This document shows positions 31,731 through 56,923 of a stretch of 64,000 nucleotides of DNA, one piece after another. How positions within the stretch are numbered: position 1 is the first letter of the stretch; every line of letters begins with the position of its first letter. The translations under genes and the position numbers were made by a program. Below the pieces are notes generated by a model. The model was given only the letters and a program-made list of their open reading frames with translations, did not search any database and was not told where the DNA came from. This DNA is from Epilithonimonas mollis (GTDB lineage Bacteria; Bacteroidota; Bacteroidia; Flavobacteriales; Weeksellaceae). The DNA is taken from NCBI RefSeq assembly GCF_900142325.1, contig NZ_FRAM01000001.1, forward strand, positions 744,001 to 808,000, in the 5' to 3' direction.

Positions 31731-31809
31731 TTTTCGGGGAACAATTAGGGTTTTGTTAACGCATAGCCTGGCGGTTCATCCGTTCTATTTCTGATGCCGG
31801 TATCAAGGC

Positions 31810-31871
31810 TTACTAATTATTAGTAACGAGCCTTACTAACTGTTAGTAACGGGGCTTACTAATGTTAGTAC
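31810..31871. promoter_or_regulatory. three tandem TTACTAA/TTAGTAA dyads upstream of pyrG
   Basis: Dyads at 31810-31826 (TTACTAA-TTA-TTAGTAA), 31833-31849 (TTACTAA-CTG-TTAGTAA) and 31856-31870 (TTACTAA-TG-TTAGTA). Centres are 23 and about 22 bp apart, close to two helical turns, so the sites face the same side of the DNA. Spacers are GC-rich. This resembles an operator array for a dimeric regulator; which gene it serves is not known. Confidence 0.55.
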
Positions 31872-31920
31872 GGGGACATCCTAAATTCCAGTACAGCGTA
31901 TCGCTATTATAAAGCATCAC

Positions 31921-42087: not shown

Positions 42088-42990
42088 ATGAAAAATTCAG
42101 CTTTAGTAATCGTAATGTTAGTGTCTCTTTTTGCCGGTAATTTTATGGCTCAGACTCAAAGAACGCCCGCTTCTGCCGGAAGGGCAGAATACATCGAAGT
42201 CGAAAAAGGTGTCAGACTGCATGTGACCGACCTGGGCGAAGGCCAACCTATTGTCCTGATCCACGGATGGCCTTTGAGCGACGAAATGTATGAGTACCAA
42301 TACCAATACCTGTCCAGAAAGGGATTCCGTGTGATTGGCATTACACTTCGTGGTTTTGGAAAATCCGACAAACCTTACGGAAGATATGATTTCGATGTGT
42401 TTTCTGATGATATCAAAGTCGTTCTTGACAAATTAAAGATTGAAAATGCTACACTCGGCGGCTTTTCTATGGGTGGCGCAGTCGTGCTTCATTATGTGAC
42501 CAAATACAATTCTGCCCACGTTGCAAAACTTGCACTGTTCGGCGCAGCAGCACCTTCATGGAGCCAAAGAGACGGTTTTCCGAATGGTGTTCCTGCCGAT
42601 GCAGCCAACAATCTGATCAAAGCAACAATGACTGACCGACAAAATCTGGCAGCCGGTCTGGGCGCTGCTTTCCAAGCCAAAGAAGGCAATATTTCCAAAA
42701 ATACGGAACGATGGATCGAGAGAATCAGCCTGGATGCATCGCCCTATGCCACTACAGAATCCATCAGGTCTCTGAGAGATCTGGATCTGAGATCCCAGCT
42801 TTCAAAAATCAACATTCCGGTGGCTATTTTCCACGGTGTGCAGGATAAAAGCTGTCCTTTCGTCTGGGCAGAAGATTTGCACAAAGGCATCAAAAACTCT
42901 CAGTTAATCCGATTCGAAAACAGCGGCCACGCGTTATTCCTGGAAGAAGTGGACAAATTCAATACTGAGTTGGAAAAATTTGCGAAATAA
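42088..42990 (+). CDS. exported alpha/beta hydrolase (haloperoxidase/esterase-like)
   Basis: 300 residues with signal peptide (ends near FMAQ). Oxyanion region LIHGWPLS, nucleophile elbow GGFSMGGA, acid in VQDKSCPF and His in NSGHALFLEE complete the Ser-Asp-His triad. It resembles cofactor-free haloperoxidases and esterases; substrate unknown. The last 46 bases of the gene are duplicated, three mismatches, at 44988-45033. Confidence 0.9.
   Translation: MKNSALVIVMLVSLFAGNFMAQTQRTPASAGRAEYIEVEKGVRLHVTDLGEGQPIVLIHGWPLSDEMYEYQYQYLSRKGFRVIGITLRGFGKSDKPYGRYDFDVFSDDIKVVLDKLKIENATLGGFSMGGAVVLHYVTKYNSAHVAKLALFGAAAPSWSQRDGFPNGVPADAANNLIKATMTDRQNLAAGLGAAFQAKEGNISKNTERWIERISLDASPYATTESIRSLRDLDLRSQLSKINIPVAIFHGVQDKSCPFVWAEDLHKGIKNSQLIRFENSGHALFLEEVDKFNTELEKFAK
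42943..42988 (+). repeat. 46-bp direct repeat, left copy (hydrolase 3' end)
   Basis: Matches 44988-45033 at 43 of 46 bases. The two copies bracket 2045 bp that hold the 21-bp repeat array and the cassette-like gene. Confidence 0.85.
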
Positions 42991-43011
42991 AAGATCATAA
43001 TAATAAATATA

Positions 43012-43044
43012 AAACACCTTGATAAAATGTATCAAGGTGTTTTT
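43012..43044 (+). terminator. terminator after the hydrolase
   Basis: AAACACCTTGAT / ATCAAGGTGTTTT, twelve pairs, seven-base loop, T run. Confidence 0.9.
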
Positions 43045-43209
43045 ATGCTTATTAAAAATTCATGATACAGCAGCATAAAGTGCATTATTTCCATTTGTAA
43101 ATCAGATCAGGTTAAAAAAAATCTTGTAGTATCAAAATTTTATTTATCTTCGCCACCATAAAACACACGATTTTAACACTCGTATATATATTAACTTTTA
43201 AAATCAAAA

Positions 43210-43698
43210 ATGATGGGATTAACCAATTTGAACTCCACACATTTGAGCAGTGCAAAGATCACTGCCGCACAGGATGCCATCGCGGCACTGGAAACAGCAC
43301 TTGCTGAAATCACAGTCAACCTTTCACCCGAAGACCGCAAACGCTACGGCAGTATCAACGAGCAAAACAAGCTTTTTGTGAACAAGGTCTACGACTACAA
43401 CCAGAGCCAGAACAACCTGAGCTCGCCCGAAGTCGACTGGGAAGAATACAACAATGACCACAGATCCAGAAACCTGATGGAAGCACTGATCAGCAGGCTG
43501 GAAAGCATCATCACCAGGCTGAACAATGCCAAAACCCTGCATGACTACGACAACTATCAGTCGGCTTTGGTGGATTATTCCTACACCACGTACAAAGCGG
43601 GAAGTTCTGCACCGGGGTTTGAAGACAAATACAAAGACCTGAAGCAGTTCTTTGTGAAAAACGGCACTTCTACCGCACCGCCGGAAGAGACAAAGTAG
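43210..43698 (+). CDS. small helical hypothetical protein next to a 21-bp repeat array
   Basis: 162 residues, no signal or membrane segment. It is predicted mostly helical: a first helix pair (AAQDAIAALETALAEI), a central block (LSPEDRKRYGSINEQNKLFV, VDWEEYNNDH), and helices AKTLHDYDNYQSALVDYSY before a disordered Thr/Pro/Glu tail. Codon use is richer in C and G than in neighbours. A possible promoter (TTG 43124-43126, N18, TATCTTCG 43145-43152) and a terminator at 43717 make it a single unit, and a 21-bp tandem array starts about 70 bases after its stop. I recall similar proteins in other Flavobacteria without a known role; no function is assigned. Confidence 0.8.
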   Translation: MMGLTNLNSTHLSSAKITAAQDAIAALETALAEITVNLSPEDRKRYGSINEQNKLFVNKVYDYNQSQNNLSSPEVDWEEYNNDHRSRNLMEALISRLESIITRLNNAKTLHDYDNYQSALVDYSYTTYKAGSSAPGFEDKYKDLKQFFVKNGTSTAPPEETK

Positions 43699-43716
43699 AA
43701 CAGAAATAATCAAAAG

Positions 43717-43748
43717 CCCCTTCGAATCATTCGGAGGGGTATTTTTTT
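43717..43748 (+). terminator. terminator between the helical protein gene and the array
   Basis: CCCC-TT-CGA / TCG-GA-GGGG stem with a T run at 43742-43748. Confidence 0.8.
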
Positions 43749-43769
43749 ATGCATCTCCCACATCATTCA

Positions 43770-44123
43770 AGTCTTCGGACAGGTTTGGCAATAGTCGGTT
43801 GGCGTTGTCTAACCTGTCCCGATACGTTGGTTACAGGTCCGGAGACGTCTTTCAACCCTATGGAGACGTTGTTCAGTGGTCCGGCGAGGTTGTGGACTGC
43901 TCCGGATACGTTCCGGACGTGTCGGGATGGGTCTTTCACCTCCCGGGTGGTGTCTTTGACGTATCGGGATAGGTTGTGGGACGTATCGGGAGGCATCCAT
44001 AACCCCGTGGGAAGGGTAAAGAACCCCGCCGGATGTTTGTGGGACGTGTCCGGATGTTCGTAGAACGTATCCGGATAGGTCCGGGACGTGTCCGGATAGG
44101 TTGGGTGACGTGTCGGGAGGGTT
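43770..44123. repeat. degenerate 21-bp tandem repeat array, about 17 units
   Basis: Cores of the form ACGTRTCSGGA recur at a 21-bp period, with a few 20-, 22- or 23-bp steps. Core T positions include 43901, 43922, 43964, 43986, 44049, 44070, 44091 and 44113. The other 9-10 bases of each unit vary (TAGGTTGTGG, GGCATCCATA, TGTTCGTAGA, TAGGTCCGGG). The array is GC-rich in an AT-rich setting. Because 21 is a multiple of three, both strands stay open and give heptad-like fake proteins; no start or ribosome site supports translation. Confidence 0.88.
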
Positions 44124-44202
44124 TTTATTGTGAATTAAAGTTTGTTGTATGTTTTTATTTGATTATTTTTAGGGAAGATATTAACTGGATTTGCGCGAGG
44201 CG
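44107..44202 (+). repeat. conserved right flank of the 21-bp array, copy 1
   Basis: About 95 bp alignable to 51062-51160, with a 24-base identical block at 44150-44173 and 51110-51133. It joins the last array unit to the cassette-like gene. Confidence 0.8.
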
Positions 44203-44213
44203 TGGAGCCAGAT

Positions 44214-44223
44214 GTTGTGCGTA
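44214..44223 (+). repeat. left 10-bp inverted repeat of the cassette
   Basis: GTTGTGCGTA, the exact reverse complement of TACGCACAAC at 44876-44885. Confidence 0.75.
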
Positions 44224-44237
44224 ATTTTACAGACTAT

Positions 44238-44870
44238 ATGGATAAACAAAAACTGAATAAGGATGTAACTGAAGATAACTTAAATCATACGTTTAAGAAC
44301 ATTCTTCTTCTAGAGAAATTATTTATCCTCGAGATTAAAAAGATTTATGAAATTGAAGATGGAATAAGTGAAATTAATCACTACATAATGTCCATTGCAA
44401 ATAGAGCGATTTCTTTAAATAGAGGATTTGTGACATTAGCTGAAAGTAATAATTATCAGTCGGCTGTTTCATTAATGAGACTTCAGATAGACAACTGCTT
44501 AAGACTTTATGCTTTAAGTTTATACAGCAATTCTAGCGAATTTTATGAAAAAGTACTAAAAGGAGAACATATTAGAAACCTTAAAGATAGAGATGGTAAC
44601 AAAATGACAGATAACTATTTGGTGAATAAAATTGACAAAATATTCCCCCAATTTGAATCATTATACAAAAAACTTAGCGGACATATTCATTTTTCTTCCG
44701 AACATTTCTCTTTTAACAATAAAGTCGACAACGGGATTGTTTCAATATCTGTAGGGAATATTGAAAATCTAGACATTTCTAAAAAAGTGGATTATTCATT
44801 TAATATGTTTTTAGTTGGTAAAGATCTTTTATCTTTAATTACTGAATACAGAAATGAAATTACAAATTAA
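44238..44870 (+). CDS. accessory helical protein, cassette-like (DUF5677-like)
   Basis: 210 residues from the ATG at 44238; a start at 44202 would read through the left inverted repeat and is rejected. All-helical with RAISLNRGFVTLAESNNYQS, AVSLMRLQIDNCLRLYALSL, LKDRDGNKMTDNYLV and LSGHIHFSSEHF, a pattern I associate with an uncharacterised family often found in mobile cassettes (DUF5677/HEPN-like); this is from memory and not certain. It is strongly AT-rich against the array beside it. It lies exactly between perfect 10-bp inverted repeats at 44214-44223 and 44876-44885. Confidence 0.75.
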   Translation: MDKQKLNKDVTEDNLNHTFKNILLLEKLFILEIKKIYEIEDGISEINHYIMSIANRAISLNRGFVTLAESNNYQSAVSLMRLQIDNCLRLYALSLYSNSSEFYEKVLKGEHIRNLKDRDGNKMTDNYLVNKIDKIFPQFESLYKKLSGHIHFSSEHFSFNNKVDNGIVSISVGNIENLDISKKVDYSFNMFLVGKDLLSLITEYRNEITN

Positions 44871-44875
44871 AAAAC

Positions 44876-44934
44876 TACGCACAACAAGGGTTTGCCAAAA
44901 GCGGGGCTGAAGTTCTTCGGTGAACTTTTGTGCG
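44876..44934 (+). repeat. right inverted repeat and attC-like foldback
   Basis: TACGCACAAC (44876-44885) begins a 57-bp foldback whose outer arms are CGCACAA (44878-44884) and TTGTGCG (44928-44934), with a nested stem AAGTTC-TTCGGT-GAACTT. Size and layout resemble integron attC sites, but the consensus ends GTTRRRY/RYYYAAC are not matched exactly and no integrase is in the window. Confidence 0.5.
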
Positions 44935-45193: not shown

Positions 45194-46694
45194 ATGGAAA
45201 AGTATCTATTATCGGGAATTTTAAACAGAGGCATTTCATCAATTGCTGTTTTAGGTCTGACATTGGTTTTTGGACAATATCAATCCAAAAAAATCACCGC
45301 TTCTACAAGAGAAAGCCGCGCGGAGTTTGGAACATCGGTTGCGATCAACAGCCAGTTTCTGGCGGTTGGCGCTTCCAGAGAAGCCGTTGCAAAAGGCGCC
45401 GTCTACATTCATCAGAAAGACGGAAGCAGCTGGAATTTCAATCAAAAAATCATGGCTCCGGACGGCTTTGAAATGGCGGAATTCGGAGGAAGTATAAAGT
45501 TTGGAAACGATTTTCTTGTGATTTCTGCGGGAAGAGCGGATATTGAAAATACCATCCGGGCAGGCGCTTTGTACGTTTATGATTTAGGTTCTGACAATCA
45601 ATGGAATTTCAGGAAGAAACTAACTGCGTCCGATTATGATAATGATGCGCTGTTAGGCGTTAATCCGACTTCCATTGCTGTTGACGGCAACACGATTGCT
45701 GCTGGTGCTCCAGGATACAGCAGTTGGAATGGCACTGTTTATATGTATGAGAAAAGCGGTACGGACTGGCTGGAAAAACAAAAAATAACTTCGCCGGAAA
45801 GTGTGGATTTTGGAAATTTTGGAATTGGCGTCAGTCTGTATGGTGATTATCTTGTGGTTGGTGCAAGTGGTGTCAGCAACAGTACAGGGAAAATTTATAT
45901 TTATAAAAAGAATAATTCCGGAGAATGGATCTTTCATCAGAGCTTAACGTCATCAGAGCTTAACGTCATCAGACAATGTTGAGAATTCTTATTTTGGAAA
46001 TTCGGTGAGTGTTTTTGGTAATGAGTTGGTTGTGGGCGCTTACACAGAATCCGGAACGAGCAATCCATCGATGGCTTATATTTTCAAACTGAATGATAAT
46101 GGAAACTGGGAAGAATCTCAGAAAATCCCAAGTTATGAATCTTCCGAACATACTTATTTTGCATGGATGTGTGAACTGAAAAATGACAGGCTCCTGATCA
46201 GCAGTCCGCATCTTTATGGTGCTGAACCCGGAAGAGCGCTGCTTTACAAAAAGAACAGCCAGAACCAATGGGAACTTGACCAAGAACTGAAACCTGAGAA
46301 CGACGTTGCAGAAGATTTTTACGGCTGGAGCATTGCGATGAACGATAACGAAATCATTGTGGGTGCATCAAGAGATAATTGGGACAATAATGAGGAAAAT
46401 GAACTCAATGATGCAGGTTCTGCCTATCTATTCATATCCCAGAATCTCGCAACCAATGAAAGTAATCTCTCTAAAAACAATGTGAAGATCTATCCTAATC
46501 CTGCTAAAGATTTTATCCATATTACAAGTAAACAACAAATTAATTCGGTTGAGCTTCTGGATCAATCCGGAAAAAGAGTTTCAGAATCCAAAGAATCAAC
46601 AATCAATATTTCAACTCTTTCAAAAGGCATTTATATTCTGAAAATAAAATTCCCGAACGGAAGTTCAGCGATTCAGAAATTGATCAAACAATAA
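45194..46694 (+). pseudogene. T9SS type A beta-propeller protein, broken by a 16-bp tandem duplication
   Basis: Signal peptide, then FG-GAP-like propeller repeats (EFGTSVAINSQFLAVGAS, NFGIGVSLYGDYLVVGAS, YFGNSVSVFGNELVVGAY), then a type A sorting tail (KIYPNPAKDFIHI, AIQKLIKQ). The frame breaks at 45941-45972, where AGCTTAACGTCATCAG occurs twice in a row. Removing one copy joins the two halves as SLTSSDNVENSYFGNSVS without any other change. The first half as it stands would end at 45982, giving a protein with no sorting domain. All other parts look intact, so the break is recent or reversible. Confidence 0.88.
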
Positions 46695-56768: not shown

Positions 56769-56923
56769 ACCAGTCTGTTTTGATTTGCCAAGTCAGATCA
56801 GACCTTCACAGATCTCCGTTTGAGTTCAGCAGATGAAATTAGACCTTCACAGATTTCTGTTTAAGTTCCTCAGGTCAGTTTTGACCTTCGCAGAATGCTG
56901 TTTTAGTCCAGCAGGTCAGATTA
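56769..56923. repeat. 41-bp tandem repeat array, about 3.7 units
   Basis: Units start with GACCTTC at 56801, 56842 and 56883, with a partial unit before. Each splits into two related halves of 20 and 21 bases (TTCaCAGAT and TTCagCAGAT cores), so the monomer is about 20.5 bp. Conserved blocks GACCTTCRCAG and GTTTNAGTTC alternate with variable 6- and 9-base parts. Confidence 0.9.

What the first reader, a model, noticed from the sequence alone, without database searches (positions are those of the whole stretch)
43210..44123. Small helical protein gene followed by a 17-unit array of 21-bp repeats with a conserved core and a variable half
The array is GC-rich and strictly phased at about 21 bp (two helical turns or seven codons). 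Each unit keeps an ACGTRTCSGGA-like core while the remaining 9-10 bases differ from unit to unit. It is separated from the adjacent 162-residue helical protein gene by a terminator, so the array is probably not just its 3' UTR. Neither CRISPR (units too short, no cas genes) nor a translated repeat explains it. A protein that binds, copies or diversifies the array is one reading; a plain minisatellite is the other.
Basis: partly seen in the sequence, partly recalled or inferred. Interest (0 to 1): 0.82.

Follow-up and report, generated by a model that had tools for sequence, protein, structure and literature searches.

The report
Helix-phased repeat array with partner gene
A small bacterial gene of unknown function is almost always followed by a string of 21-letter DNA repeats whose letters change between distant lineages while the 21-letter spacing hardly does, which points to an unrecognised protein-DNA system in the Bacteroidota.

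Summary
The array is real: 43775-44123 has ~17 units in one 21-bp register, with cores on both strands because each unit is a degenerate dyad. It is not peculiar to this genome. In the 80 best named homologue loci, the best period within 500 bp after the stop codon is 21 bp in 77 and 22 bp in 1. A strong 20-23-bp period (z>5) is found in 73 of 80, against 0 of 79 upstream and 0 of 223 after other ORFs of the same loci. In a class-wide sample 22 of 29 loci have it (z>4.5). Repeat sequence differs between distant lineages; period and self-complementarity persist. In the main clade the skeleton GGT-N5-ACC shows phase-dependent conservation. Coding and a conserved RNA fold are not supported. Orphan arrays lie 3' of unrelated genes, mainly in genomes carrying the gene (16 of 18 against 121 of 302). 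Scanned family members match no Pfam, NCBIfam or PDB family significantly. Best reading: a cis-acting, helically phased DNA-site array with a dedicated trans-acting helical protein, REP/RAYT-like in logic only. Binding itself is inferred.

The parts
43210..43698 (+). Gene of the 162-aa all-helical protein, here called the array-associated protein
   Evidence: ORF list; homologues in 135 of 320 family genomes; AlphaFold2 mean pLDDT 86.9, pTM 0.67, all-helical with a 55-residue helix 77-131
43716..43748 (+). Intrinsic-terminator-like hairpin and T run between gene and array
   Evidence: Sequence; kept in Chryseobacterium orthologues and the main helix RNAalifold keeps
43775..44123 (.). Array of about 17 units of 21 (22) bp; each unit a degenerate dyad, here by eye ACSTRTCCGGAYASGT plus about 5 bp
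   Evidence: 77% identical second copy in the genome
43775..43911 (-). Left part of the array; its exact cores are on the - strand (43817, 43901)
   Evidence: head-to-head organisation in 55-59 of 70 arrays
43912..44123 (+). Right part of the array; its exact cores are on the + strand (43917, 43959, 43981, 44044, 44065, 44086, 44108)

Best explanation
The array is a cis-acting double-stranded-DNA element: roughly 7-30 degenerate palindromic sites placed every 21 bp, two turns of B-DNA, so that all sites face one side of the helix, in two head-to-head blocks. It belongs with the adjacent gene, whose small all-helical acidic protein, alone or in a complex, recognises, organises or maintains such arrays. 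Arrays also lie alone at 3' ends of other genes, where the protein could act in trans. Shown: linkage, period, dyad skeleton, phase-dependent conservation, orphan arrays and their co-occurrence with the gene. Inferred: binding by the protein, one-face geometry as the reason for 21 bp, and action in trans. The cellular purpose (chromosome organisation, 3'-end insulation, or self-propagation) is not determined.
For: Linkage: z>5 at period 20-23 in 73 of 80 loci downstream, against 0 of 79 upstream and 0 of 223 after other ORFs of the same loci; 119 of 129 non-redundant loci have period 21 or 22 with z>4. Geometry tied to the protein: 22-bp arrays in 11 loci need 5 changes on the protein tree, shuffled mean 10.7, minimum 8 in 200 shuffles. 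DNA-level symmetry: one 21-bp skeleton from 243 blocks, score 3.70 against null 1.11-1.18, T 86% and A 81%, strand-symmetry correlation 0.94. Conservation by phase: mismatch 0.093 (T10) and 0.120 (A16) against 0.27-0.34 at positions 2 and 12-14 in 24 disjoint orthologue pairs; T at phase 10 mismatches 0.066 against 0.222 for T elsewhere, A at 16 0.086 against 0.234. Trans logic: orphans in gene-bearing genomes 16 of 18 against 121 of 302, p 7e-5; orphan most similar to its own genome's gene array in 10 of 16. Site number per array: rough delimitation.
Against: The protein is acidic (median pI 5.4 of 79), shows no recognisable DNA-binding domain and no significant fold match. Two of 18 orphan-bearing genomes lack a detectable gene. 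Six of 16 orphans do not match the sampled gene array of their genome, and several of the ten matches are by small margins. Arrays of both strands fold better than shuffles (mean z -4.5 and -3.9), which self-complementary repeats would do anyway but which leaves RNA open. Two loci have the array upstream of the gene (L035, L221). Many 1-9-bp indels appear in array alignments (472 against 329 of 10 bp or more). The preset 8-position core is the slowest of 21 rotations only narrowly (0.193, next 0.200).
Confidence: 0.5

Rival explanations
1. Selfish dispersed element: the protein's job is to spread or rewrite arrays (copying, gene conversion or transposition), as RAYTs are proposed to do for REPs; orphan arrays are its non-autonomous copies.
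For: Orphan arrays mainly in gene-bearing genomes, orphan most like its own genome's gene array in 10 of 16 (the closest are G215 L170 and G000 L011), unrelated repeat sequences between lineages with near-perfect arrays in some (L245, L240).
Against: No nuclease or transposase family detected in the members scanned, array on one side of the gene only, few orphans per genome in the strict-pattern sample, and no target-site analysis was made.
Confidence: 0.2
2. The array is a binding platform for a general host protein such as gyrase or a nucleoid protein, as BIMEs are; the helical protein does not touch it and the linkage is regulatory or structural for that locus.
For: Orphans sit 3' of genes, 7 of 16 between convergent genes and 0 between divergent ones (read by eye, no baseline measured); slow positions about half a helical turn apart.
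Against: A general binder does not explain why one gene family has the array in 119 of 129 loci while 0 of 223 other ORF ends nearby do, nor why period follows the protein tree.
Confidence: 0.15
3. The array is a transcribed structured RNA (long hairpin or hairpin series) bound by the protein, as in type III toxin-antitoxin loci.
For: Folding energy below the shuffle mean on the + strand in each of 32 arrays, mean z -4.46; one candidate long-range helix in the orthologue alignment (24 pairs, 86% paired, no control run for it); in the 22-bp clade the array end looks like a terminator by eye.
Against: RNAalifold of 21 orthologous arrays gives only -18.0 kcal/mol over 513 columns, mostly the terminator before the array; complementarity is no higher at hairpin distances than far away; the skeleton is strand-symmetric; Rfam has no credible match in 42900-44400.
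Confidence: 0.1
4. Neutral minisatellite carried along with the gene.
For: Unit gain and loss (indel peaks at 21 and 42 bp), fast substitution (downstream identity 68-96% where the proteins are 79-98% identical).
Against: Neighbouring units are only about 50% identical, which makes slippage an unlikely keeper of phase; conservation depends on phase also when letters are matched; linkage reaches across the class.
Confidence: 0.04

Closest known systems
REP/BIME elements with REP-associated tyrosine transposases (RAYT)
   Same: Dispersed extragenic palindromic repeats, a gene regularly accompanied by them, repeat type tending to match the gene of the same genome (RAYT features from the abstract and 12 passages of PMC2817692)
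   Different: No Y1 transposase domain; array on one side only; fixed 21-22-bp period; repeat sequence not shared across distant lineages; few copies in the strict-pattern sample
Type III toxin-antitoxin loci (ToxIN/CptIN/TenpIN; recalled)
   Same: Small protein gene next to a tandem array and a terminator
   Different: Array after the gene, no conserved RNA fold found, dyad-symmetric DNA, protein matches no known endoribonuclease family
Iterons and centromere-like sites of plasmids (recalled)
   Same: Short phased sites beside the gene of their binding protein
   Different: Chromosomal contigs, at 3' ends, no Rep, ParB or ParR match in the scans made, solitary arrays elsewhere
CRISPR arrays (recalled)
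   Same: Repeats with a constant and a variable part
   Different: 21-bp period, no cas gene noticed near the window array, no spacers; the variable part is dyad arm and spacer

Membership tests
REP/RAYT | Gene encodes an IS200/IS605-type tyrosine transposase (Pfam Transposase_17, PF01797) | tested here: not met
   Pfam scans of the window protein and six relatives give no such match
[quoted passage not shown]
   Strong 20-23-bp period upstream in 0 of 79 loci and 2 of 29 of the class sample
REP/RAYT | Palindromic repeats dispersed elsewhere in gene-bearing genomes | tested here: met
   15 orphans among 29 distinct loci fetched; 16 of 18 orphan genomes carry the gene
REP/RAYT | High copy number (more than 100 per genome) | tested here: inconclusive
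   Strict pattern finds 0 to 50 overlapping site hits per genome; degenerate arrays, such as both of the window's genome, are missed by it
Type III toxin-antitoxin | Tandem RNA repeats with a conserved fold, upstream of the toxin gene (recalled) | tested here: not met
   Array is downstream; alignment fold -18.0 kcal/mol, essentially the terminator; no credible Rfam match
Type III toxin-antitoxin | Toxicity neutralised by the RNA | not testable with these tools
   Needs expression assays
CRISPR | Near-identical repeats of about 23-47 bp with unique spacers (recalled) | tested here: not met
   Period 21 bp, neighbouring units about 50% identical, pooled
CRISPR | cas genes nearby | tested here: inconclusive
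   ORFs of 36-52 kb listed show no cas-like gene by eye; no cas profile was searched
Neutral minisatellite | Evolution without positional constraint inside the unit | tested here: not met
   Mismatch rate varies with phase, 0.093 to 0.337, correlation -0.76 with letter frequency; holds for the same letter on and off phase
Coding repeat | One reading frame kept open | tested here: not met
   17 of 70 against 24.9% null; 22-bp arrays in 11 of 129 loci
DNA-site array bound by the adjacent gene's product | Specific binding of the protein to the units | not testable with these tools
   Needs EMSA, ChIP or SELEX

The most novel reading that the evidence does not exclude
A previously unrecognised, class-wide bacterial system in which a dedicated helical protein defines arrays by spacing more than by sequence: any strand-symmetric repeat will do so long as its sites recur every two helical turns, so the protein (or its polymer) reads or writes a 21-bp ruler on DNA and seeds such rulers at 3' ends across the chromosome, a bacterial analogue of satellite DNA with its own ruler protein.
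Probability: 0.3. Interest if true: 0.92.

Novelty: categorically new. Interest (0 to 1): 0.82.

Why it matters
A gene family found in 137 of 320 genomes of the window's family and 32 of 295 sampled across the class, whose scanned members have no significant match in Pfam, NCBIfam or PHROGs, comes with a non-coding element conserved in geometry more than in sequence, so ordinary sequence searches would not find it. If the protein writes or reads a 21-bp ruler, this would be a new principle for marking bacterial chromosomes, and sequence turnover under fixed spacing would give a tractable model of satellite-like concerted evolution.

Tried and rejected
Coding heptads: 21 bp is seven codons, but frames are open no more often than in a column-permuted null (17 of 70 against 24.9%), and 22-bp arrays exist (11 of 129).

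RNA: single-sequence folding looked promising (32 of 81 delimited arrays, chosen by me, first 420 bp, 30 shuffles each; mean z -4.46 on + and -3.88 on -; the window's delimited stretch overshot the array end). The orthologue alignment does not keep a fold (three of 24 arrays, L019-L021, were dropped beforehand as shorter), and pairing is not local (complementarity in the dyad class 0.379 against 0.252 in other classes, but 0.325 when columns are permuted and the best class is picked again; 66 arrays). One long-range candidate helix was not tested further.

Known families: Pfam, NCBIfam, PADLOC and PHROGs (seven, four, three and four members scanned) gave only weak hits (best phrog_2196, unknown function, E 0.0027; NCBIfam DpdI, E 0.0049 for L104, far below its cut-off). 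PDB sequences: best E 0.012 to a helical IFT70 stretch. Foldseek: no hit at E 0.001 or better for the window protein in PDB and BFVD or for the C5 paralogue in PDB. One scan of viral contigs found no relative.

A class-wide pattern search was a poor assay: outside the family the reversed-pattern control also hits arrays, apparently because skeletons differ there.

Literature: seven searches in the held open-access library; among the listings shown (capped in 77 and 95) none names a 21-bp array beside this gene family. Only PMC2817692 was opened (abstract and 12 passages). Subscription papers are not covered.

Not done: transcript data, strain-level comparison within a species, whole-genome scan for degenerate arrays, a baseline for gene orientation around orphans.

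Full report
WHAT IS THERE. The window array lies at 43775-44123, about 27 bp after a terminator-like hairpin that follows the 162-aa gene 43210-43698. Identity at lag 21 is 0.518; the highest value at any lag 12-40 in 1000 shuffles was 0.371. Among 150-bp windows of the 64 kb, the best lag-21 score away from the array is 4.0 (43451, inside the gene) against 7.6 in the array. Nine exact cores fall in the array, seven on + and two on -, and their dyad centres fit one register (84, 21, 42, 22, 63, 21, 21, 22 bp apart). The genome has a second array, 77% identical over 328 of 366 query bases. It lies 3' of a 675-aa ORF that looks like an outer-membrane beta-barrel by eye and faces a convergent ORF, with no copy of the helical gene beside it.

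LINKAGE TO THE GENE. In the window's genus the array DNA is found in 4 of 23 genomes, own included; in the three relatives it follows the orthologue directly, which is 83-84% identical. More distant homologues also carry arrays, of different sequence. Of 22 loci examined, 18 show a period of 21 or 22 after the gene among their top windows (no threshold was set there); the exceptions are L034 (an inverted-repeat insertion stands there instead), L035 (array before the gene) and two truncated genes (L010, L047). For a test by rule I took the 80 best of 236 loci in titled genomes (17 of them are close orthologues, 76% identity or more) and scanned 150-bp windows at periods 12-40 in the 500 bp after the stop codon. 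The best period is 21 in 77, 22 in 1 and other in 2 (L113, L128); 73 of 80 have z above 5 at period 20-23. The same criterion is met upstream in 0 of 79 and in distal controls in 0 of 74 and 0 of 74. A control matched for gene ends, the 500 bp after 223 other ORFs of at least 150 aa in the same loci, gives 0 of 223 with z above 5 (best period 20-23 in 25, none above z 5). L113 carries the same downstream insertion as L034, and L128 shows a degenerate 21-bp pattern by eye. In L077 a stop early in the frame moved the scan start.

DEPTH. Across 295 genomes of the class the gene is found in 32. Of the 30 loci fetched, one is the window's own and was left out; in the other 29 (one from the same family) the best downstream period is 21 in 21 and 22 in 3, and 22 of 29 reach z>4.5 at period 20-23, against 2 of 29 upstream, one of which (L221) is an array placed before the gene. 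Pooling all gene loci, 160 were given and 31 dropped as duplicates, too short downstream or without a frame of 110 aa; of the 129 left, 108 have period 21, 11 have period 22 and 10 have neither by the z>4 rule. The 22-bp loci need only 5 changes on the protein tree, against 10.7 on average and 8 at least in 200 label shuffles, so the period follows the protein's ancestry. Unit sequences look unrelated between distant lineages. What is shared is the gene, the period and self-complementarity.

THE SKELETON. Cyclic alignment of 243 four-unit blocks, from arrays with the same filter as the 70, gives one 21-bp skeleton: GG-T(86%)-T-NNN-A-A(81%)-CC, with a second dyad centre half a period away. Its score is 3.70 against 1.11-1.18 for column-permuted blocks, and its strand symmetry is 0.94. 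In 24 disjoint orthologue pairs the mismatch rate is 0.093 at T10, 0.120 at A16, 0.135 at position 0 and 0.157 at positions 5 and 9, against 0.27-0.34 at positions 2 and 12-14. The slowest places (0, 5, 9-10, 16) are thus about half a turn of B-DNA apart. The preset 8-position core is the slowest of 21 rotations, but narrowly (0.193, next 0.200). Matched for the letter, T at phase 10 mismatches 0.066 against 0.222 for T at other phases, A at 16 0.086 against 0.234, G at 9 0.095 against 0.273. The array is therefore held by selection on DNA positions, although neighbouring units are only about 50% identical (0.499 pooled). Arrays are built head to head: in-phase identity is higher within halves than across in 59 of 70, and complementarity higher across than within in 55 of 70.

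NOT CODING, NO CONSERVED RNA FOUND. Fully open frames are no commoner than in a null (17 of 70, 24.9%). Arrays of both strands fold better than shuffles, as strand-symmetric repeats tend to. But the alignment of 21 orthologous arrays keeps only -18.0 kcal/mol on + and -10.1 on - over 513 columns, mainly the terminator before the array, and complementarity is not concentrated at hairpin distances. One long-range candidate helix (24 pairs, 86% paired) was seen and not tested further. Rfam gives nothing near a gathering score in 42900-44400.

ORPHANS. A strict three-site pattern hits 29 of 320 family genomes, while the reversed control hits 2. It misses degenerate arrays, both of the window's genome among them. 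Of 29 distinct loci fetched (30, one a duplicate), 9 carry a full-length gene beside the array, 2 a truncated or broken one (L171, L178), 3 hits lie inside ORFs and are taken as chance (L164, L165, L185), and 15 are orphans within the 1.5 kb seen on each side (the array of L186 lies in open frames and may be coding). Read by eye, with the own-genome orphan added, 7 of 16 orphans lie between convergent genes, 8 between tandem genes, 1 is unclear and none lies between divergent genes; no baseline was measured. Eighteen genomes have at least one orphan (list assembled by hand); 16 carry the gene, against 121 of the other 302 (Fisher p 7e-5; the genomes are related, so the p value is optimistic). 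The orphan is most similar to a gene array of its own genome in 10 of 16 cases, several by small margins; the six failures include genomes in which not all gene arrays were sampled.

THE PROTEIN. Homologues occur in 137 of 320 family genomes with the deep profile. The 80 loci listed are, by their titles, Bacteroidota; one scan of viral contigs found none. AlphaFold2 models of the window protein (pLDDT 86.9, pTM 0.67) and of the divergent paralogue on C5 of the same genome (best model pLDDT 90.6, two of five models below 70) agree on an all-helical protein with one 55-residue helix, about 8 nm long by arithmetic, near the 7.1 nm of 21 bp; this coincidence is only suggestive. No fold match is significant. 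In 59 close members the invariant residues are mostly charged or polar (R43, E51, N53, K54, N58, E79, D83, R87, D112, D114, Y116, Y123); in the deep alignment of 31 only one tyrosine is invariant. The median pI is 5.4, which speaks against simple unaided DNA binding.

HOW IT LIKELY WORKS. I commit to a DNA-level element read by the linked protein or its complex: sites every two turns on one face, in two head-to-head blocks, able to act also where arrays stand alone. The logic resembles RAYT genes and REPs (abstract and passages of PMC2817692), but the defining transposase and the two-sided flanking were tested and not found, so it is not filed as a member. Whether the protein writes arrays, organises DNA on them, or only shares their locus is open. 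The window genome probably belongs to Epilithonimonas (inferred: L042, from the window's genus, carries the array of L119, Epilithonimonas lactis).

Noticed in passing
window 45934-45973: 2.5 perfect copies of a 16-bp repeat sit where two ORFs (45194-45982 and 46005-46694) of what looks by eye like one secreted beta-propeller-type protein change frame; 16 is not a multiple of 3, so slippage could switch the gene. Described only.
   Followed up: no
window 44190-44900: The 222-aa ORF right after the array (weak DUF5677-like match) is bounded by GTTGTGCGTA and TACGCACAAC in inverted orientation, like a cassette. Orthologous arrays in two relatives (L030, L031) are followed by a similar tail and then other sequence, as at an insertion hot spot.
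   Followed up: partly
L034 and L113, directly after the gene: Two loci without an array carry instead an inverted-repeat (MITE-like) insertion bounded by ACCTGAATTCGGGATAAG and its complement; they look like the same species.
   Followed up: no
L038, L044, L045: In the 22-bp clade an ORF that looks by eye like an IS200-type small transposase begins shortly after the array in three genomes.
   Followed up: no
L035 and L221: The array lies upstream of the gene, with TAAAATTTTA-type units, in two hosts of different families.
   Followed up: partly
G000 C10:116445-116693 (L010): Truncated 89-aa paralogue in the window's own genome, without a detected array.
   Followed up: no
window 31807-31884 and 56792-56923: Two other tandem repeats (23 bp x 3.4 and 41 bp x 3.2) in the window.
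   Followed up: no
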